A stretch of 64,000 nucleotides of DNA, from IMG/VR virus record IMGVR_UViG_3300021511_000003, positions 124,001 through 188,000 of that record; one strand, given 5' to 3'. The position numbers and the translations under genes are program-made. The stretch comes from a virus. A model generated the notes under the pieces. That model worked only from the letters and a program-made list of their open reading frames with translations, ran no database searches and was not told the origin of the DNA. Below are positions 32,771 through 45,643 of this stretch, one piece after another; within the stretch, counting starts at the first letter, position 1; each line of letters opens with the position of its first letter.

Positions 32771-33181
32771 TTACAATAATTTCAAATGACTGGTAATTTT
32801 ATCAATATTTGAAATTTCATCTGGACCAATTGCCAATGCTGTATATGTTGCTACTCCGTGAAATTCAGTTAAACCAGAATCATGAATCAATGCATTGATT
32901 ATTTTATAATCATCAGCAGATTTTTTTAAAGATAACAATTCTTCTTCTGAATCACAACTAACAACAATTTTTGTAAATAAACCAGTTAACCACTGATATA
33001 AAGGTTTATCATGGTGCATTGTCACCCCTATTGTTGTATATTCCTCGTAAAATTCTGAATGATGCATTAAATCTAAAATAGCTTTCATAGAAGCGTGAGC
33101 TCCCTGAGCAATCATTTTACCCTTCCTCATATTTAAATCTTTTCTGATTACAATTACTTGTTTAGTTTTCATTATAATCAT
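32771..33181 (-). CDS. pth2: Peptidyl-tRNA hydrolase, Pth2 family
   Basis: KQVIVIRKDLNMRKGKMIAQ and GAHASMKAI form the Pth2 N-terminal core (K/R-G-K-x-x-A-Q-x-x-H). IVVSCDSEEELLSLKKSADD and GPDEISNIDKITSHLKLL the rest. Rescues tRNAs from dropped-off peptidyl-tRNA. Located between tRNA-Lys and tRNA-Cys. Pth2 is the archaeal/eukaryotic type, rare in bacteria but seen in phages. Confidence 0.8.
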   Translation of the reverse strand: MIIMKTKQVIVIRKDLNMRKGKMIAQGAHASMKAILDLMHHSEFYEEYTTIGVTMHHDKPLYQWLTGLFTKIVVSCDSEEELLSLKKSADDYKIINALIHDSGLTEFHGVATYTALAIGPDEISNIDKITSHLKLL

Positions 33182-33199
33182 ATATTTCCTTTCTTGTGG

Positions 33200-33273
33200 A
33201 GTCGGTGGAGGGATTTGAACCCCCGATAACGGTGTTGCAGACCGTCGCCTTAGACCAACTTAGCTACACCGAC
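33200..33273 (-). tRNA. tRNA-Cys(GCA)
   Basis: Loop CTGCAAC in a stem ACGGT/ACCGT; acceptor GTCGGTG/CACCGAC, U73 (a Cys identity base), encoded CCA. Confidence 0.93.
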
Positions 33274-33285
33274 TTAAATATAAAT

Positions 33286-33446
33286 AATAGGACTACACTA
33301 ATTTTCGTCAAAATTATACCACCATTGTCCTTTTGGACTTTCCATATACCTCGTCCTATTATGAAGGATAATGTACCGGAAGTACTCTTTCGAGTGGCAC
33401 TTAATCCATTCAAAGGAGTGTCCTCGGATTTCAAGCATTCCGGTAC
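33286..33446. ncRNA. Two-module structured RNA of unknown family
   Basis: Module 1 is closed by AATAGGAC/GTCCTATT (33286-33293, 33353-33360) with inner hairpins AATTTT-cgtc-AAAATT and GTCC-tttt-GGAC. Module 2 is closed by GTACCGGA/TCCGGTAC (33373-33380, 33439-33446) with inner ACTC-tttc-GAGT and CACT...AGTG. Non-coding, between a small basic gene and tRNA-Cys. Direction unproven, probably minus. Confidence 0.45.
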
Positions 33447-33452
33447 AAGCTA

Positions 33453-33623
33453 TTAACGAGAAGCTTTTTTAGCAGCTTTTTTGGCAGCTTTTTTAGCTTC
33501 TTTTTTGGCACGACGTTCTTTATTTATTTCCCAACGACGTTCAATATTATAACGGGACTTGGCAGGACGACGTCCAGAACGTCCATGTTTGCGACTTTTT
33601 TTACCAGTTTTAGTATTAGACAA
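33453..33623 (-). CDS. Small Arg/Lys-rich protein with AKKA tail
   Basis: 56 residues from a TTG codon placed 9 bases after a perfect AAAGGAGGTG site. SNTKTGKKSRKHGRSGRRPA then tandem KKAAKKAAKKA. Very basic, like nucleic-acid or ribosome-binding tails (histone H1, ribosomal proteins). No family recognised. The strong ribosome site suggests high expression. Confidence 0.65.
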   Translation of the reverse strand: MSNTKTGKKSRKHGRSGRRPAKSRYNIERRWEINKERRAKKEAKKAAKKAAKKASR

Positions 33624-33687
33624 GATGTTTCACCTCCTTTAAAATGAATTTACATCTTGATAATACCTCCTGCACTTAATAATTTAA

Positions 33688-34449
33688 TCATATTTTTTCT
33701 CCTTCAATTTCTTTTATATCATCTTTTACTTTTGTATAATCGACTCGTTTTTGATAAGTGCCTTGCAATTCTTTTGCTAAAGCATCTTTGATTTTTTGGA
33801 GGTCACCGAGTCTCATTACAACATCATCTAACTGCCCATCGCTCATTAAATCATTAATTGTATCTTCAATAATAATCAAAGGGTCAAACTCTGACTGACG
33901 ATTTTGAGCCTCTGATCTTGATCTTGCTTCTAGATGATCACATATCATTAAAATTGCTGATTCTATGCATGTTGGAATTGTACCTTTATAACGATAATGA
34001 TCCTCAACGTCGCTTCCTGATTTTTTAAAGAAGTATTTCATTACTGAAGTACCATGATGTTGAGTTGCAATTTTAATCAATTCAATGGGAAAAACACCTT
34101 CGTGTAATAATATAAAAGCTGTGTCCGAAATGTGTCTACTTATAATTTGAAAACTTATTTTTGGATCAAGGTTATCGTGTGCATTTTCACTATCTAATTG
34201 ATTTTCTGTAAAATAGTTGGGATTTATGATTTTACCAACATCATGATACAATGCCGCAACTTTCATAAATGTTATATCAAGACCTAAGTCAATTGAAATT
34301 GCTTCAACCATCGATGCCAAGTTTTGTGAATGTTTATAACTACCAGGGCACATTTCTCTAAATTTGTTTAATAAAGGATAAGAAGTTTCAAGTAGGTCTT
34401 TTAGAACATCTTTTTCTTTTTCATCATGTTGACTAATTTCATCGACCAT
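33688..34449 (-). CDS. PgpH/YqfF-like HD phosphohydrolase
   Basis: GSYKHSQNLASMVEAI, ALYHDVGKIINPNYFTENQ, NAHDNLDPKISFQIISRHI, ATQHHGTSVMKYFF and LMICDHLEARSRS match the HD domain of PgpH-type c-di-AMP phosphodiesterases in order. The membrane and 7TMR parts are absent (253 residues). Predicted soluble metal phosphohydrolase that could act on a cyclic nucleotide signal; substrate not shown. Confidence 0.75.
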   Translation of the reverse strand: MVDEISQHDEKEKDVLKDLLETSYPLLNKFREMCPGSYKHSQNLASMVEAISIDLGLDITFMKVAALYHDVGKIINPNYFTENQLDSENAHDNLDPKISFQIISRHISDTAFILLHEGVFPIELIKIATQHHGTSVMKYFFKKSGSDVEDHYRYKGTIPTCIESAILMICDHLEARSRSEAQNRQSEFDPLIIIEDTINDLMSDGQLDDVVMRLGDLQKIKDALAKELQGTYQKRVDYTKVKDDIKEIEGEKI

Positions 34450-34476
34450 TATATCTCCTAACTTTGATTAAAATGG

Positions 34477-34551
34477 TACCCCCGGCAGGATTCGAACCTG
34501 CGACTTCCTAGTTCGTAGCCAGGCGCTCTATATCCACTGAGCTACGGGGGC
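34477..34551 (-). tRNA. tRNA-Arg(ACG)
   Basis: Loop CTACGAA; acceptor GCCCCCG/CGGGGGT with G1-U72 wobble; A73; encoded CCA. Confidence 0.93.
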
Positions 34552-34558
34552 TTATTTA

Positions 34559-35251
34559 TTAATAAGGATAATCAATAATTGTAATTTTATCCGAATAGTA
34601 CCACTCAAACATATTTCTTCTAAGTTTAGCCATATAGATTTTATTTTCAGCTTTTCTTCTCAGATTATAAAATACTATACCTTCTGCCATAATATCTTTA
34701 TTTCCTTGTTTTGTAGCAAACCGAGAAATAAGCCAATCTTTAAACCATAGACTCCAATTATCAAACGTTCTATCATGTTCATGAAATGATCTATATGATA
34801 GATGTTTAACTGCTTTTTCAAAAGGATACCAAATATGTGTTTTCAATTTATAAGGATTCCCCTGTAGTTTTGGTCCTATTAATTCGCCAGCTTGAACCCC
34901 ATCTTGTTTTACATACCCTTTTGAAATTGCTTGAAAAACACCTTCGATGATAAATGTTTTTCCTTTTATAATTTGTAATGGGTCAATTACATTTTTTCTA
35001 TTTTGAAGAGCAGTTAATCTACCATTTTCTGTCATGAGTTTTATATTGCTACCATCTAATTTTTCTACTGCAAAAGTATCTTTATCCTCAAATACCCACT
35101 CATATCCAGGAGTGATTTCAGTAGTTACTAAATATGCAGATGGTCTTCGTAATTGTAATTTTCTTCCATATTTTTTCCATTCAGTTATGTTCACGTCAAA
35201 GTCCTTTCTAATAAAAGGACATTGTAGTTTTGGAAAGTTTGTTAGTACCAT
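34559..35251 (-). CDS. RNA ligase-like nucleotidyltransferase
   Basis: FAVEKLDGSNIKLMTENGRL is ligase motif I (KxDG), TFIIEGVFQ motif III-like, MAEGIVFYN motif IV and KIYMAKLRRNMF motif V. 230 residues, close to the catalytic domain of Rnl2-type RNA ligases. Placed among tRNAs, so tRNA repair after anticodon-nuclease attack is a fair inference. Confidence 0.7.
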   Translation of the reverse strand: MVLTNFPKLQCPFIRKDFDVNITEWKKYGRKLQLRRPSAYLVTTEITPGYEWVFEDKDTFAVEKLDGSNIKLMTENGRLTALQNRKNVIDPLQIIKGKTFIIEGVFQAISKGYVKQDGVQAGELIGPKLQGNPYKLKTHIWYPFEKAVKHLSYRSFHEHDRTFDNWSLWFKDWLISRFATKQGNKDIMAEGIVFYNLRRKAENKIYMAKLRRNMFEWYYSDKITIIDYPY

Positions 35252-35277
35252 TTTTACACCTATATGTATTATTGTGT

Positions 35278-36180
35278 TTATTCAGTTATTGTTCTTAATT
35301 TATTAATATACATTTCCATTTCATCAAGAACTGAATTGATTGAGATATTCGTTGTAATTGCATTTTTTAAAGAACCATAATGATGCTCGAGACATTGAAG
35401 AAGTAAAGATTTGATTTTATCTTCATCTGGAGAATGTTGTAATGAACTAAATGTATATAATGACTCAAGTTCTTTTTCTTTTATTTTAAAGTATTCAACT
35501 AATTGGTCTTGACTCCATTCACCACTTCTAATTGATTTTAACTGTTCTCTATTTCTTTCAAGATCAAGATTATGTTCAGTTAGTATTTGTTCTATTTCAT
35601 TTAATAAACGAACTACATGATATGCAAATTTTAAATCATATCCATATTTCTGAATCATATCATATCGTGAACTTCCAGGTTCAGGATTTTTAATTTTCAT
35701 TTTATGAAGTTGGCTATAAGCATACCCTTTAAATCTATACCATGCTCCTTTATGAAGAAACAATTTTCGGTTTTCTCTGACTAATTCACCTACAGCAGTA
35801 GAATGTAAAATACACCGTATAGGAACGAAAAGAGAGTCAATCATATTGGGATTATTTTGCATACACAATTGAAAATATTTAACAATTGAATATATAGTAA
35901 AATCATATTCTTTTTTAGCACTTATATCATTTACATGGTGTTGTTGCCATTGTTCAAATCTTTTATGTTGTTTTCCAAACCCTTGAATTATTCCATTTAA
36001 ATTAGGAAATACAACATGTTTTGGTGGAATACAAAATCCATAAATATCCATATCTGATGTATCAGATGAAACACCATAAGCAACAGACCCCATAATTACT
36101 TCATATTGTACATTGTTTTTTAGAAATCCAGGTGGTCGAATTAATTGCCTGGATGTTAGTCTATCAATAATTGATCCCAT
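35278..36180 (-). CDS. DNA polymerase beta-superfamily nucleotidyltransferase
   Basis: EVIMGSVAYGVSSDTSDMDI is the GS(x)xYG...SDxD motif of the YcgL/minimal nucleotidyltransferase group. The helical C-terminal half (KYGYDLKFAYHVVRLLNEIE) is also typical. 300 residues. Located next to the CCA-adding enzyme. Exact substrate unknown; RNA or protein nucleotidylation possible. Confidence 0.7.
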   Translation of the reverse strand: MGSIIDRLTSRQLIRPPGFLKNNVQYEVIMGSVAYGVSSDTSDMDIYGFCIPPKHVVFPNLNGIIQGFGKQHKRFEQWQQHHVNDISAKKEYDFTIYSIVKYFQLCMQNNPNMIDSLFVPIRCILHSTAVGELVRENRKLFLHKGAWYRFKGYAYSQLHKMKIKNPEPGSSRYDMIQKYGYDLKFAYHVVRLLNEIEQILTEHNLDLERNREQLKSIRSGEWSQDQLVEYFKIKEKELESLYTFSSLQHSPDEDKIKSLLLQCLEHHYGSLKNAITTNISINSVLDEMEMYINKLRTITE

Positions 36181-36213
36181 ATATATCACCTTTTATATCA
36201 TGACCTATATAAA

Positions 36214-37560
36214 TTAAATTTTTATTCTCTTTATAATTTTAATAAGGTCTTTTTTATTATTCACTATTGGATTTTCAATCACTGCATCAAGTAATATCTT
36301 GAGAATTTTACCAACGTTTGGTCCTGGTGGAATATTTATACATTCCATTACATCTTTACCATTAATTGCTAAATCTGTAACATTAAATTCTCCAGATAAG
36401 GTTATGTGCCTAGCTTCATAAATCATCATAACCATTTTTTTCAATTCTGTTTTTGAATAATCAGAAACTCCCAAATTTCCTTTTTTATCAGCTACTTTTA
36501 ATTTAAACCAATCTTTCCAATTGACCTTATGTTCAGAAAAGAGTCGTAGCATTCTTCTTACCCCTTTTCTTTTTATATCTTTTGATAAACTTCTCATATG
36601 AAATCTTGTTAGATCACTTACTCGTTTAATTTCATCTTTACTAAATACATATTTGTTCATCCACTCTTTAACAAGTCTTTGACCAATATCTTCATGATCA
36701 ACAAAATTTTCTTCGTTTGATTCTATCCATGCATCAGGTTTGCCAATATCATGAATATATCCTGTTAATCTTAATATAGGATCTTTTGGTGAAATATTAT
36801 CACCAACTAATTTAAAATGTGTACATAAAGTTTCATTGTGATATTTACCACCAGGAAACCCATATAGTCTATCAAGTTCAGGAAATATATTTTTTAATAA
36901 GCCTGTTTCATGTAATACATCGAAAAATATACTTGGTTTTTTGTATGGCATTGCTTTCATAAATTCAAGTCTTATTCTTTCCGGTGAAACTTTTAATATA
37001 AGATCGCAATTTTTTTTAATTGCTAAAAAGGTAGATTGATCTAAGGTTCCTTCAATCAGGCAAGTAAATCTTGCGGCACGGATCATTCTTAAATAGTCTT
37101 CATAAATTCGTTGTTCAGCATTTCCTACAAACCTTATAATTTTATTTTCAAGATCTTTTCTACCGTTGAATTTATCTATCACTTCACCAGTATAAGGACA
37201 TACTGCCATGGCGTTAAATGTAAAATCTCTACGCATTAAATCATCATCTAAAGTTTCGCACGCAGTAGTAATACAATTATGACGCCCAGGTTTCATATTT
37301 TTATCAGATCTATATGTTGAAACCTCAATACTATCTATTAATGTTACAAGAAAGCTTGCTCCTACAAGATCTACTTTACGATCAGGAAAGATATGTGCAA
37401 GATCATCGGGGGTTGCATCTGTAACAATATCATAATCATGAGGATCAAAATCTGCAAATATATCTCGTACTGCTCCTCCAACTAAATACGCACTCCAACC
37501 ACATTCACATATTCTTTGAATTAACTTATCACTTAATTCTTCTTCAGTATTGCTTTTCAT
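36214..37560 (-). CDS. cca: CCA-adding tRNA nucleotidyltransferase with HD domain
   Basis: SAYLVGGAVRDIF and HDYDIVTDATPDDL supply the class II nucleotidyltransferase active site; LMRRDFTFNAMAV, RIYEDYLRMIRAARF and SPERIRLEFMK are the neck and body motifs. LTGYIHDIGKPDAW is a following HD domain. 448 residues, full length. Would repair tRNA 3' ends and mature the two tRNAs here that lack an encoded CCA. Confidence 0.92.
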   Translation of the reverse strand: MKSNTEEELSDKLIQRICECGWSAYLVGGAVRDIFADFDPHDYDIVTDATPDDLAHIFPDRKVDLVGASFLVTLIDSIEVSTYRSDKNMKPGRHNCITTACETLDDDLMRRDFTFNAMAVCPYTGEVIDKFNGRKDLENKIIRFVGNAEQRIYEDYLRMIRAARFTCLIEGTLDQSTFLAIKKNCDLILKVSPERIRLEFMKAMPYKKPSIFFDVLHETGLLKNIFPELDRLYGFPGGKYHNETLCTHFKLVGDNISPKDPILRLTGYIHDIGKPDAWIESNEENFVDHEDIGQRLVKEWMNKYVFSKDEIKRVSDLTRFHMRSLSKDIKRKGVRRMLRLFSEHKVNWKDWFKLKVADKKGNLGVSDYSKTELKKMVMMIYEARHITLSGEFNVTDLAINGKDVMECINIPPGPNVGKILKILLDAVIENPIVNNKKDLIKIIKRIKI

Positions 37561-42142: not shown

Positions 42143-42213
42143 CAGGTCAGTGGGATTTGAATCCAACTTCTGGGTTTGGAGTCCAGTATTCTTACCGTTA
42201 GAACTACTGACCT
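42143..42213 (-). tRNA. tRNA-Trp(CCA), short T-arm region
   Basis: Loop CTCCAAA gives CCA; acceptor AGGTCAG/CTGACCT; G73; encoded CCA. Only 71 bases: variable region plus T-arm are about 2 bases short and the T-stem has a mismatch. Confidence 0.8.
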
Positions 42214-42228
42214 GTAAATATTTTTTGG

Positions 42229-42304
42229 TGACCCCGACGGGACTCGAACCCGTGTATTGAGGGTGAAGGCCTCATATCCTTATGCCTATTAGGACTACGG
42301 GGTC
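42229..42304 (-). tRNA. tRNA-Glu(TTC), C33
   Basis: Stem TGAGG/CCTCA around loop CCTTCAC gives TTC with C at 33. Acceptor GACCCCG/CGGGGTC, A73, encoded CCA. Confidence 0.88.
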
Positions 42305-43084: not shown

Positions 43085-43470
43085 TGGTGGACCAGCTGGG
43101 AGTCGAACCCAGTTCCGCAAAAATTCAAATTAAGTATCTACACTCATAGTCAACTTTTAGATTTAGTTACCCCCACGTTCAAACACGGAGTTGACATAAC
43201 AACGGAGCCAACGGTGTACATTTGCTGGTAAGTTTGAAAATAAGAATGCCAGTTTGCAGTACCATTGCCCATTCTTATTTCGATCTCTTTACGTCGATGC
43301 CCCATCCCAATTCAAGAGAATAATTGGGTGGAACAGATTAAGCAGCTTTTGCGAAATCGGTGTAATAATCGTCTGCAATTATTGTTAGTGATAATGTTTT
43401 TACGGAGTAACATATCATTCTCCGGAGTGCAACTTTTTTTTCTTTTCCACGTCGAAACCTTTTCTGGCCC
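43085..43470 (-). ncRNA. ssrA: tmRNA (ssrA), tag ADDYYTDFAKAA
   Basis: 5' end GGGCCAGAAAAGGTTTCGAC matches the tmRNA consensus; 3' end has the T-arm TGGGTTCGACTCCCA and CTGGTCC-A-CCA, pairing with GGGCCAG including a G3-U70 pair needed for alanylation. The tag frame (43376-43338) starts at GCA and reads ADDYYTDFAKAA, then TAA. Adds a degradation tag to proteins on stalled ribosomes. Single-piece form, in a phage tRNA island beside a YqeY-like gene. Confidence 0.93.
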
Positions 43471-43478
43471 ATATAAAT

Positions 43479-44036
43479 TTATAAGTTCAATAATATATTT
43501 TTAATAAAGTTTCCATCAGATCCTTTAAATCGTTTCATGATTGGACCCATTGCTTGCATTTTATTCTTGAATCTACTCATATCAAGCCCTTTTATATATC
43601 TAATAATTTCTTCTTTATTTACTTGAGCAGGAAGATATTTTTTAGCGATTTTAATATTATGTGATATTAATTTATCGTCCAACTTTTGAATTTTATCTTT
43701 GACTATTTTTTTAACTTCTGCTGGAGTCTTACCAGATACATCAGCTTCTTTTAAAAATTTTAGCTCATACAATCTTCTTTCTTTTTCTTGATTTATATAT
43801 TTTTTCAATAACTTGATGATATCATCATCGGTAATATCTTTTGATTTTTTTCCAGTTTCAGGGAACATACTTATAATTGCTCTTGAAACTGTTTTTTGTG
43901 CAATCATAATGTTATATGCTGTTTTAGTTTCTTTACTGTTAGCCAAAAATACAATAACTCCTTTCTTTCTATATTTTATTTCAATTTCCATTGCGTATTT
44001 CAGATCAGCTCTTATTCTTTTTAATATTTTACTCAT
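43479..44036 (-). CDS. YqeY/GatB C-domain-like protein
   Basis: SKILKRIRADLKYAMEIEIK at the start, a helical middle, KKYLPAQVNKEEIIRYIKGL and MQAMGPIMKRFKGSDGNFIK at the end follow the YqeY family, related to the tRNA-binding tail of the GatB amidotransferase subunit. 185 residues, slightly long. Probably binds tRNA. The stop lies 9 bases from the tmRNA 5' end. Confidence 0.75.
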   Translation of the reverse strand: MSKILKRIRADLKYAMEIEIKYRKKGVIVFLANSKETKTAYNIMIAQKTVSRAIISMFPETGKKSKDITDDDIIKLLKKYINQEKERRLYELKFLKEADVSGKTPAEVKKIVKDKIQKLDDKLISHNIKIAKKYLPAQVNKEEIIRYIKGLDMSRFKNKMQAMGPIMKRFKGSDGNFIKNILLNL

Positions 44037-44061: not shown

Positions 44062-44133
44062 TGGCCCAGGTGGGGATCGAACCCACGAATGAGGGTTTTA
44101 GAGACCCCTGCTCTACCACTAAGCTACTGGGCC
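44062..44133 (-). tRNA. Amber-suppressor tRNA, anticodon CTA
   Basis: Acceptor GGCCCAG/CTGGGCC, D-stem GCTT/GAGC, stem GGGGT/ACCCT around loop CTCTAAA, T-arm GTGGG-TTCGATC-CCCAC. Numbering from the acceptor gives C34 T35 A36, which reads UAG. A73. CCA is not encoded (TAC follows). The amino acid cannot be told from sequence alone. Confidence 0.85.
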
Positions 44134-44138
44134 TCTAA

Positions 44139-44462
44139 TTATAGTAGAAGACTCTTAAGATTATAACTATACATACAGTATGTATATACTAATATAACTA
44201 ATGAAAAACATTTAACTAAAAGAGTTGATTCCCTTTTAGTTAATTGTTTTTTTATTCCTTTGATTGTCAAATATAAAATTAATAATAGAAATGGTATTTT
44301 TGTTAATAACATTGTTGTTTGAATGCCAATAATTCCCATAAGGTAATTAATAATGGGGTTCATTTCTATAGCATCTTTGTCTAAAATAATTATAGTTGAT
44401 ATATAATCAAAAATATTTATGAGCCAGATAAATACACAACTGATAATTAAAAATTTATTCAT
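44139..44462 (-). CDS. Small membrane protein (DUF5658-like)
   Basis: 107 residues with about three membrane helices: FLIISCVFIWLINIFDYIST, NYLMGIIGIQTTMLLTKI with the next hydrophobic run, and LVKCFSLVILVYTYCMY. Resembles small DUF5658 proteins. Function unknown. Confidence 0.55.
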   Translation of the reverse strand: MNKFLIISCVFIWLINIFDYISTIIILDKDAIEMNPIINYLMGIIGIQTTMLLTKIPFLLLILYLTIKGIKKQLTKRESTLLVKCFSLVILVYTYCMYSYNLKSLLL

Positions 44463-44749
44463 AATAAATTTAACCTTTCTGTAAACTTGCTATTCATATC
44501 AGTTGCTATTGCAGTTGTTTCATTATTCATATCTGGTTCTTTGAACTCAGTGTATGGAATTCCTTCTCTTTTAAATTTTATTTTTAAACTCTCTAACTGG
44601 TTCAAACCCTTAACACCCAAGTATATTAAGGTACCATTGTTCCAGCGAGAGAGAGGGCTGTGAAGCATATAGTCAGCAACCGCATGACCTGCTTGCACAG
44701 CCCTTTGAGATATTGAAATATCTTTACGCACAATTACGTAGAGCTTCAT
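44459..44749 (-). CDS. Pth2-type peptidyl-tRNA hydrolase-like protein
   Basis: MKLYVIVRKDISISQRAVQA and GHAVADYML fit the Pth2 N-terminus (with the QAGHA block). ETTAIATDMNSK ends it. 96 residues. Second Pth2-like gene here. Start 44749 is preceded by GGAAGG and lies within the upstream gene. Confidence 0.65.
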   Translation of the reverse strand: MKLYVIVRKDISISQRAVQAGHAVADYMLHSPLSRWNNGTLIYLGVKGLNQLESLKIKFKREGIPYTEFKEPDMNNETTAIATDMNSKFTERLNLL

Positions 44750-45017
44750 CAATCTTACCTTCCCATGATAACATGTAATTTTCAATGACATGTTTACTTG
44801 GCTTGTCATTACATGAAATTTCAATCATATTATATGGAGTTCGATTAAATAATTGACAATAAGCTATATGTTTATGTCTATAGGTCCAACGATTTTCATC
44901 CAACCCATGAACAAAACCAAAAACTTTATCTTTTCTTGTCTTTTTCTGCTCTTTGATCTTTTGTGCTAAAGATTTTTGCTCTTCTTTTATCTTATTTTTT
45001 AATTCCTTGAATGTCAT
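44724..45017 (-). CDS. Hypothetical basic protein
   Basis: 97 residues; Lys-rich helix at the N-terminus (LKNKIKEEQKSLAQKIKEQK). GGAG before ATG. Unknown. Confidence 0.5.
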   Translation of the reverse strand: MTFKELKNKIKEEQKSLAQKIKEQKKTRKDKVFGFVHGLDENRWTYRHKHIAYCQLFNRTPYNMIEISCNDKPSKHVIENYMLSWEGKIDEALRNCA

Positions 45018-45318: not shown

Positions 45319-45364
45319 TAAATGTTGTATAATAGTTTGAGAAATTGATATGGAGTGAAAATGG

Positions 45365-45448
45365 TGGGGGGTGGAGGAGTTGAACCACTTGCCACCGCCT
45401 AACATATTTTGGCAACGATTTTACAGACCGCAGTTAGGAACACCCCCC
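45365..45448 (-). tRNA. tRNA-Tyr(GTA)-like, no normal D-arm
   Basis: Acceptor GGGGGGT/ACCCCCC, A73, encoded CCA; stem GCGGT/ATCGT around loop CTGTAAA gives GTA. Only GTTCCTAACT stands where a D-arm belongs. CCTAAC can pair with GTTAGG in the 25-base variable region. The T-stem is weak. Could be an aberrant functional tRNA or a decayed one. Confidence 0.6.
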
Positions 45449-45449
45449 A

Positions 45450-45643
45450 TTATTTTAAGTCTTTACGTTTCCTCTCGATTACATATTCAATAACTTCTCC
45501 AAACTTATCAAATTCGATACATTTGAATTTTGTTCTTATATAAAAATAAAATAACCCAAATCTTTTTTTAACTCTATATTTACCCTTACCGTAATTAATT
45601 ATACGATAAGTTCTATTTGTATTTTTAACATGTGCTTTCCCAT
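45450..45643 (-). pseudogene. Small gene needing a -1 shift after codon 3
   Basis: AAGGAGG then ATG reads MGKHMLKIQIELIV and stops. A -1 shift at GGGAAAG joins MGK to AHVKNTNRTYRIINYGKGKY and on to an intact ~64-residue basic protein ending RKRKDLK. GGGAAAG has the X-XXY-YYZ form of slippery sites. Confidence 0.5.

What the first reader, a model, noticed from the sequence alone, without database searches (positions are those of the whole stretch)
44062..44133. Amber-suppressor tRNA (anticodon CTA) in the tRNA island
A complete cloverleaf gives anticodon C34-T35-A36, which reads UAG. At least nine frames in the window, several of them unsure small ORFs, end with TAG, while most genes use TAA or TGA. 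So UAG is rare but still serves as stop, fitting either occasional read-through or recoding of a subset of genes, perhaps late ones outside this window.
Basis: partly seen in the sequence, partly recalled or inferred. Interest (0 to 1): 0.8.

Follow-up and report, generated by a model that had tools for sequence, protein, structure and literature searches.

The report
Phage stop-codon tRNA with dedicated partner protein
This virus of bacteria carries a genuine tRNA that should read the stop codon UAG although its genes still use UAG as an ordinary stop, and in many unrelated phages the same kind of tRNA sits right behind a gene for a small peptidyl-tRNA-hydrolase-like protein, which suggests an undescribed translation-tampering cassette rather than a changed genetic code.

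Summary
The tRNA is real: ARAGORN and Rfam both call it, with anticodon CTA. The window lies in a 223-kb phage contig. UAG there is a plain stop: about 25 of 282 genes end in it, it swaps freely with UAA/UGA in orthologues, there is no coding or homology past it, and no release factor gene. So recoding or programmed read-through is not supported.

The new result is the tRNA's company. Orthologous CTA tRNAs (compensatory stem changes, invariant anticodon loop) follow the same two genes in four related phages: an unnamed all-helical protein (ORF97) and a PTH2-fold protein (PTH2L) lacking the canonical GK and DAG motifs. A tRNA-blind scan for PTH2L found 64 viral contigs; 54 have a CTA tRNA within 6 kb, all on the same strand, 53 downstream, usually 20-600 bp away. 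Tryptophan-tRNA control loci: no PTH2L in 59 loci, no CTA in 77. Cultured cluster C mycobacteriophages and Acinetobacter phage ME3 have the pair. Lak megaphages and one huge phage have PTH2L near an ochre-type (TTA) tRNA.

Orphan suppressor tRNAs in standard-code phages are known and unexplained; I found no report of this coupling. Its function is inferred, not shown.

The parts
44062..44133 (-). tRNA gene, anticodon CTA (reads UAG); no encoded CCA
   Evidence: ARAGORN, Rfam RF00005 69.5 bits; syntenic orthologues with compensatory stem changes
44099..44101 (-). anticodon CTA, in loop CTCTAAA
   Evidence: sequence; loop invariant in the four orthologues
44459..44749 (-). PTH2L: 96-aa PTH2-fold protein; ATG at 44749 lies inside ORF97, TGA stop overlaps the next gene
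   Evidence: Pfam PF01981 27.5 bits, cut-off 23; AF2 pLDDT 95.9, Foldseek best hits all PTH2; linked to CTA tRNAs
44724..45017 (-). ORF97: 97-aa all-helical protein (motif YRHxHIAYCxxRGRTxEQIE), overlaps PTH2L
   Evidence: homologue directly upstream of or fused to PTH2L in 46 of 66 PTH2L loci; no Pfam, no PHROG, no PDB fold
44139..44462 (-). small membrane-type protein (DUF5658) between PTH2L and the tRNA; no room for it there in G001 or G004
   Evidence: Pfam PF18902; only 10-11 bases separate PTH2L and the tRNA in G001 and G004
43479..44036 (-). YqeY-like protein next to the tRNA (weak match)
   Evidence: Pfam PF09424 26.1 bits, just under its cut-off of 27
43085..43470 (-). tmRNA, tag ADDYYTDFAKAA
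   Evidence: ARAGORN, Rfam RF00023 137.8 bits
36214..37560 (-). CCA-adding tRNA nucleotidyltransferase (the CTA tRNA encodes no CCA)
   Evidence: PHROG 2244, 6e-69
32771..33181 (-). second, canonical PTH2 with the GK motif, in the same tRNA island
   Evidence: Pfam PF01981 114 bits

Best explanation
The feature is a functional UAG-reading tRNA that forms part of a conserved, co-oriented phage cassette: ORF97 - PTH2L - tRNA(CTA). Proposed mechanism: during infection the tRNA, charged by whichever host synthetase its body suits, competes with RF1 at UAG. PTH2L is a dedicated partner that acts on this tRNA in its peptidyl- or aminoacyl- form, recycling it or limiting damage after read-through. 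ORF97, sometimes fused to PTH2L, may help it bind RNA. Because phage genes are neither recoded nor protected against UAG read-through, the target is more likely the host (its UAG-ended genes or a translation-based defence) than phage late genes. Shown: the tRNA, its conservation, the linkage, the predicted fold, and ordinary use of UAG as a stop. Inferred: charging, suppression, PTH2L activity and the target.
For: tRNA called by two methods and conserved with compensatory changes and an invariant CTCTAAA loop. The ORF97-PTH2L-CTA order is kept in G000, G001, G004 and G007. Of 110 CTA loci found by tRNA pattern, 34 carry PTH2L, 27 within 1 kb and all 27 on the same strand; matched Trp-tRNA loci 0 of 59 (Fisher 9e-8). 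Reverse scan with a PTH2L profile: 54 of 64 viral loci have CTA within 6 kb, all same strand, 53 downstream. Adding two MAG contigs gives 56 of 66, and 19 of 20 single-tRNA loci are CTA. Trp loci: 0 CTA among 533 tRNAs. Annotated phages: ET08, Phabba and ME3 have the pair within 0.5 kb, BF within 3.4 kb; Lak-A1, Lak-B4 and LR745208 have PTH2L near a TTA tRNA. PTH2 fold. UAG is an ordinary stop in these loci too (109 of 735 long ORFs).
Against: No activity is shown: neither charging, nor suppression, nor hydrolysis. PTH2L lacks the canonical GK lysine and DAG motif (alignment), so it may not be a hydrolase. Discriminator base and acceptor pairs of the linked CTA tRNAs vary (A 21, T 20, G 16, C 4), so no single synthetase identity is visible. 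Most CTA-tRNA loci (76 of 110) show no PTH2L nearby, and G005 has CTA and an ORF97 homologue but no PTH2L. Moby and phiAS5 have PTH2L hits but no CTA pattern in the genome. The PTH2L subfamily was first defined from CTA-adjacent proteins, so the 84% applies to that subfamily and not to PTH2 at large.
Confidence: 0.5

Rival explanations
1. The tRNA serves recoding or programmed read-through of a few phage genes (first reader; code-15 type).
For: The anticodon matches UAG; Lak phages, which the literature describes as reading TAG as sense, have a PTH2L near a TTA suppressor tRNA. About five CTA loci in IMG/VR lengthen their ORFs when TAG is read.
Against: Stop use, extensions, orthologue comparison and gene scoring all show TAG as a plain stop in G000 and relatives. 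No RF gene. 0 of 64 PTH2L loci show TAG lengthening above 1.3-fold.
Confidence: 0.07
2. The tRNA does not elongate at UAG. It is an uncharged or regulatory decoy that occupies A sites at UAG, for example shielding ribosomes from A-site mRNA cleavage by RelE-type toxins (which prefer UAG, from my own knowledge) or disturbing RF1, with PTH2L as its binding protein.
For: No conserved synthetase identity elements in the linked tRNAs. PTH2L keeps the fold but not the GK/DAG motifs. tmRNA and a canonical PTH2 lie in the same island.
Against: The anticodon loop and stems look like a competent elongator, most of these tRNA genes encode CCA, and the phage has a CCA-adding enzyme.
Confidence: 0.22
3. 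The linkage is only a tRNA-island effect: PTH2L is a general ribosome-rescue gene that rides with tRNA clusters, as proposed for cluster C mycobacteriophage arrays (PMC5966550).
For: Many carriers have tRNA islands and tmRNA; the window also has a canonical PTH2 between other tRNAs.
Against: 19 of 20 single-tRNA PTH2L loci carry CTA. In CTA-pattern loci with at least three tRNAs the nearest tRNA to PTH2L is CTA in 15 of 17, 3.3 expected. Trp-tRNA loci with 533 tRNAs have no CTA and no PTH2L.
Confidence: 0.06
4. The hosts, or alternative hosts, reassign UAG, and the tRNA keeps phage translation compatible with them.
For: The host is unknown, and the carriers are diverse.
Against: Phage genes end in UAG normally; M. 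smegmatis, Acinetobacter and Serratia hosts of carriers use the standard code (own knowledge).
Confidence: 0.05

Closest known systems
Orphan suppressor tRNAs of standard-code phages (XacN1, RsoM2USA, Summit, Atu_ph07, zeta crAss-like clade 8)
   Same: A CUA (or UCA) tRNA is present without identified recoded genes. XacN1 tRNA-Sup is the best match of this tRNA among phage records (76.7%), with the same CTCTAAA loop.
   Different: Those papers report no target and no partner; here the tRNA is tied to ORF97-PTH2L in many phages.
Stop-codon-recoding phages (crAss-like, Lak; code 15)
   Same: They encode CTA or TTA suppressor tRNAs; the two Lak records examined also have a PTH2L near a TTA tRNA.
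   Different: No in-frame TAG, no RF2 gene and no ORF lengthening here.
PTH2 peptidyl-tRNA hydrolases (PF01981; e.g. PDB 2zv3, 1q7s)
   Same: Fold and family score; keeps R-x-D, Q and H positions.
   Different: Lacks the GK lysine and DAG motif, has FxEPD and TA(I/V) instead, is shorter, and is genetically tied to one tRNA.
PTH2-like gene in cluster C mycobacteriophage tRNA arrays (PMC5966550)
   Same: Same gene family in the same arrays.
   Different: That paper treats it as general rescue; it does not mention the suppressor tRNA.

Membership tests
tRNA (RF00005) | Cloverleaf with covariance-model score above threshold | tested here: met
   69.5 bits, threshold 29
Amber suppressor tRNA | Anticodon CTA in a 7-nt loop with T33 and A37 | tested here: met
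   CTCTAAA loop
Amber suppressor tRNA | Is aminoacylated and inserts a residue at UAG in vivo | not testable with these tools
   needs reporter and charging assays
tRNA-Pyl (ARAGORN's label) | Small D-loop without GG, 6-bp anticodon stem, 3-nt variable loop, one-base acceptor-D linker (own knowledge) | tested here: not met
   GG in D-loop, 5-bp stem, 5-nt variable loop, TA linker, standard T-loop (sequence)
Genetic code 15 (TAG-recoding) phage | In-frame TAG codons inside genes | tested here: not met
   gene scoring, extensions and orthologues
Genetic code 15 (TAG-recoding) phage | Often a phage RF2 gene | tested here: not met
   no PF00472 match on the contig; contig may be incomplete
PTH2 family (PF01981) | Profile score above gathering cut-off | tested here: met
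   27.5 bits against 23; 16 of 25 subfamily members match at E <= 0.001
PTH2 family (PF01981) | PTH2 fold | tested here: met
   AF2 pLDDT 95.9; Foldseek best hits 2zv3, 3erj, 1q7s, 1wn2, 1xty
PTH2 family (PF01981) | Canonical GK and DAG active-site motifs | tested here: not met
   profile alignment to 2zv3 and 1rzw
PTH2 family (PF01981) | Hydrolyses peptidyl-tRNA | not testable with these tools
   biochemical assay needed

The most novel reading that the evidence does not exclude
Phage stop-codon tRNAs are, in a large share of carriers, half of a dedicated host-directed translation-interference or counter-defence cassette (ORF97-PTH2L-tRNA-stop), in which an unusual PTH2-fold protein acts specifically on that tRNA; code recoding in Lak-type phages would be a later use of the same device.
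Probability: 0.35. Interest if true: 0.92.

Novelty: new variant of a known kind. Interest (0 to 1): 0.77.

Why it matters
Several phage genome papers report amber or opal suppressor tRNAs in standard-code phages and say their purpose is unknown. A conserved protein partner gives a first handle on that question. The pair is present in cultured phages of M. smegmatis (cluster C) and Acinetobacter (ME3), so deletion, reporter and in vitro tests are straightforward. It also bears on how stop-codon recoding could arise, since the tRNA and partner occur without recoding.

Tried and rejected
tRNA-Pyl: wrong architecture. Recoding or read-through of phage genes: rejected on stop use, extensions, orthologues and scoring. 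A conserved in-frame extension after the TAA of ORF97 looked like read-through in three genomes but is explained by the overlapping PTH2L start (sequence). Blast of read-through frames against relatives gave 128 hits, mostly out-of-frame shadows. Back-up stops after TAG: not enriched. Amino-acid identity: no conserved discriminator or acceptor pairs. YqeY as the conserved partner: found only in G002, G003 and G008, not in G001, G004 or G007. ORF97 fold: no PDB match. PTH2L profile A2 was too diverse for a collection scan; A3 worked. A first PTH2L HMM with untrimmed members inflated scores and was rebuilt.

Full report
1. Observation. ARAGORN calls a tRNA with anticodon CTA at 44062-44133 on the minus strand. 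Rfam RF00005 scores it 69.5 bits over the whole model. From the sequence the anticodon loop is CTCTAAA, the T-loop TTCGATC, the discriminator A; CCA is not encoded, but a CCA-adding enzyme lies in the same island (36214-37560). ARAGORN's label 'Pyl' reflects only the anticodon; the architecture is that of an ordinary bacterial elongator tRNA. The window is positions 124001-188000 of a 223,015-base phage contig.

2. Is UAG recoded? I read the whole contig and made crude gene calls: 282 genes ending TAA 202, TGA 55, TAG 25, ten of the TAG ends inside the window. The share of TAG among TAG+TGA (31%) equals that expected from composition. In-frame extensions after TAG show coding signal in four cases; the same happens after TAA and TGA where a neighbouring gene is in frame. 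Reading TAG as sense lowers the summed gene score in this contig and in three relatives. In reciprocal best orthologues of G000 and G001, only one of 55 pairs ends in TAG in both; TAG pairs with TAA or TGA in 12. No release-factor domain is found. A second stop soon after TAG is not enriched: 24% within five codons, against 39% after TAA and 47% after TGA, pooled over four genomes. UAG is therefore a plain stop, and the phage neither exploits nor guards against its suppression. TAG-ended genes include an RNA-polymerase-like subunit, an SbcC-like protein and a helicase.

3. Conservation. Related IMG/VR contigs found through the CCA-adding enzyme and the DNA polymerase carry a CTA tRNA in the same place, upstream of tRNA-Glu: G001, G004 and G007. 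A more distant one, G005, also has a CTA tRNA. Two others with tRNAs (G008, G010) have none in the sequence held. The four orthologues keep all 21 stem pairs, nine with changes on both sides, and an invariant anticodon loop: selection for a folded CTA tRNA.

4. The neighbour. Directly upstream lies a 96-aa protein (44459-44749) that matches Pfam PTH2 above its cut-off; its start overlaps an unnamed 97-aa protein, ORF97 (44724-45017). The order ORF97-PTH2L-CTA is the same in G000, G001, G004 and G007; PTH2L and the tRNA are 10-11 bases apart in G001 and G004. In the window a DUF5658 gene lies between them. The PTH2L model is confident (pLDDT 95.9) and its best Foldseek matches are all PTH2 enzymes; a profile search of the PDB agrees. 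Yet the canonical GK lysine and the DAG motif are absent in the alignment. The window also has a canonical PTH2 at 32771-33181, so PTH2L is not simply the phage's only peptidyl-tRNA hydrolase.

5. How general is the pair? Only about five show clear ORF lengthening when TAG is read, so most carriers look standard-coded locally. A trimmed PTH2L HMM hits 34 of 110; 27 lie within 1 kb, all on the same strand. The same pattern with one base changed (tryptophan tRNA) gives 0 of 59 (Fisher 9e-8). In CTA loci with three or more tRNAs the nearest tRNA to PTH2L is CTA in 15 of 17, where 3.3 are expected. (b) A reverse scan with a PTH2L profile, which knows nothing of tRNAs, gave 64 loci (59 non-redundant; 58 from contigs not in set a). 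In 54 a CTA tRNA lies within 6 kb, 50 within 1 kb, all 54 on the same strand and 53 downstream. The only two hits in GTDB genomes, both on MAG contigs, also have it. Of 20 loci with a single tRNA, 19 have CTA. Tryptophan-tRNA loci have 533 tRNAs and no CTA. (c) Annotated phages: ET08 (cluster C) has PTH2L and then tRNA-Sup(cta). Phabba and Acinetobacter ME3 have the pair within 0.5 kb, Serratia BF within 3.4 kb. XacN1 and RAS14 have CTA matches elsewhere. Lak-A1 and Lak-B4 have a TTA tRNA as the only tRNA within 6 kb of PTH2L, and LR745208 has one about 100 bases away. Moby and phiAS5 show no CTA pattern, so the link is strong but not absolute. Caveat: the subfamily was first defined from CTA-adjacent members.

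6. ORF97 is directly upstream of, or fused to, PTH2L in 46 of 66 loci. It has no Pfam, PHROG or PDB fold match and is predicted all-helical. G005, which lacks PTH2L next to its CTA tRNA, keeps an ORF97 homologue, with an HNH-endonuclease-like ORF (identified by eye) in between.

7. Mechanism. The tRNAs share the anticodon loop but not the discriminator base or the acceptor pairs that synthetases read. This suggests that reading UAG matters and the inserted residue does not, or that the tRNA is a decoy. My best reading is a small translation-tampering cassette: a UAG-reading tRNA that competes with RF1 in the infected cell, with a dedicated PTH2-fold partner acting on that tRNA. The host, or a translation-based host defence, is the more likely target because phage genes are neither recoded nor protected. 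Everything after 'conserved CTA tRNA genetically coupled to PTH2L and ORF97' is inference.

8. What is known. Orphan suppressor tRNAs in standard-code phages are reported for XacN1, RsoM2USA, Summit, Atu_ph07 and zeta crAss-like phages, without explanation or with speculation about defence. A PTH2-like gene in cluster C tRNA arrays was noted as a possible general rescue factor. XacN1 was noted to encode a peptidyl-tRNA hydrolase, not linked to its suppressor tRNAs. Searches combining peptidyl-tRNA hydrolase or Pth2 with suppressor tRNA found no report of the coupling; the library holds only open-licence papers, so prior notice elsewhere cannot be excluded.

Noticed in passing
IMG/VR CTA loci, e.g. 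L103:910-1467, L145:3260-3508, L150:875-1120: A second protein family (core FHFNKKHLEDxxIPMWVxK...WSTKETPDNxHTKGSIK) recurs next to CTA tRNAs: 35 of 120 CTA loci, 0 of 77 tryptophan-tRNA loci, 1 of 64 PTH2L loci; no Pfam match.
   Followed up: partly
window 45363-45452 (minus strand): By eye, a tRNA-like sequence with loop CTGTAAA (GTA, Tyr) and a long variable arm that ARAGORN and Rfam did not call.
   Followed up: no
window 42143-42213 and 42229-42304 (minus strand): tRNAs found by Rfam but missed by ARAGORN; loops read by eye as CCA (Trp) and TTC (Glu).
   Followed up: partly
window 32771-37560 (minus strand): tRNA repair and maturation set in the island: canonical PTH2, HD protein, RNA-ligase-like protein (below Pfam cut-off), RlaP-type nucleotidyltransferase, CCA-adding enzyme; an RtcB-like sequence lies elsewhere on the contig (G000 202690-203847, by eye).
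   Followed up: partly
G000:35637-38348 (outside the window): 903-aa protein with RNA polymerase Rpb1 domains, ending in TAG, in a phage with a T4-like family B DNA polymerase.
   Followed up: no
L309:4465-4535 and L076:21-94: Annotation errors: Phabba 'tRNA-Arg(tct)' is CTA by ARAGORN, and Stenotrophomonas phage DLP_3 'tRNA-Glu' reads CTA by eye.
   Followed up: partly
L388 (contig in a Guaymas Basin Spirochaetes MAG): PTH2L 68% identical to the window's, followed by CTA tRNA and a tmRNA with tag ADDYYQEFALAA; a possible but weak host hint.
   Followed up: partly
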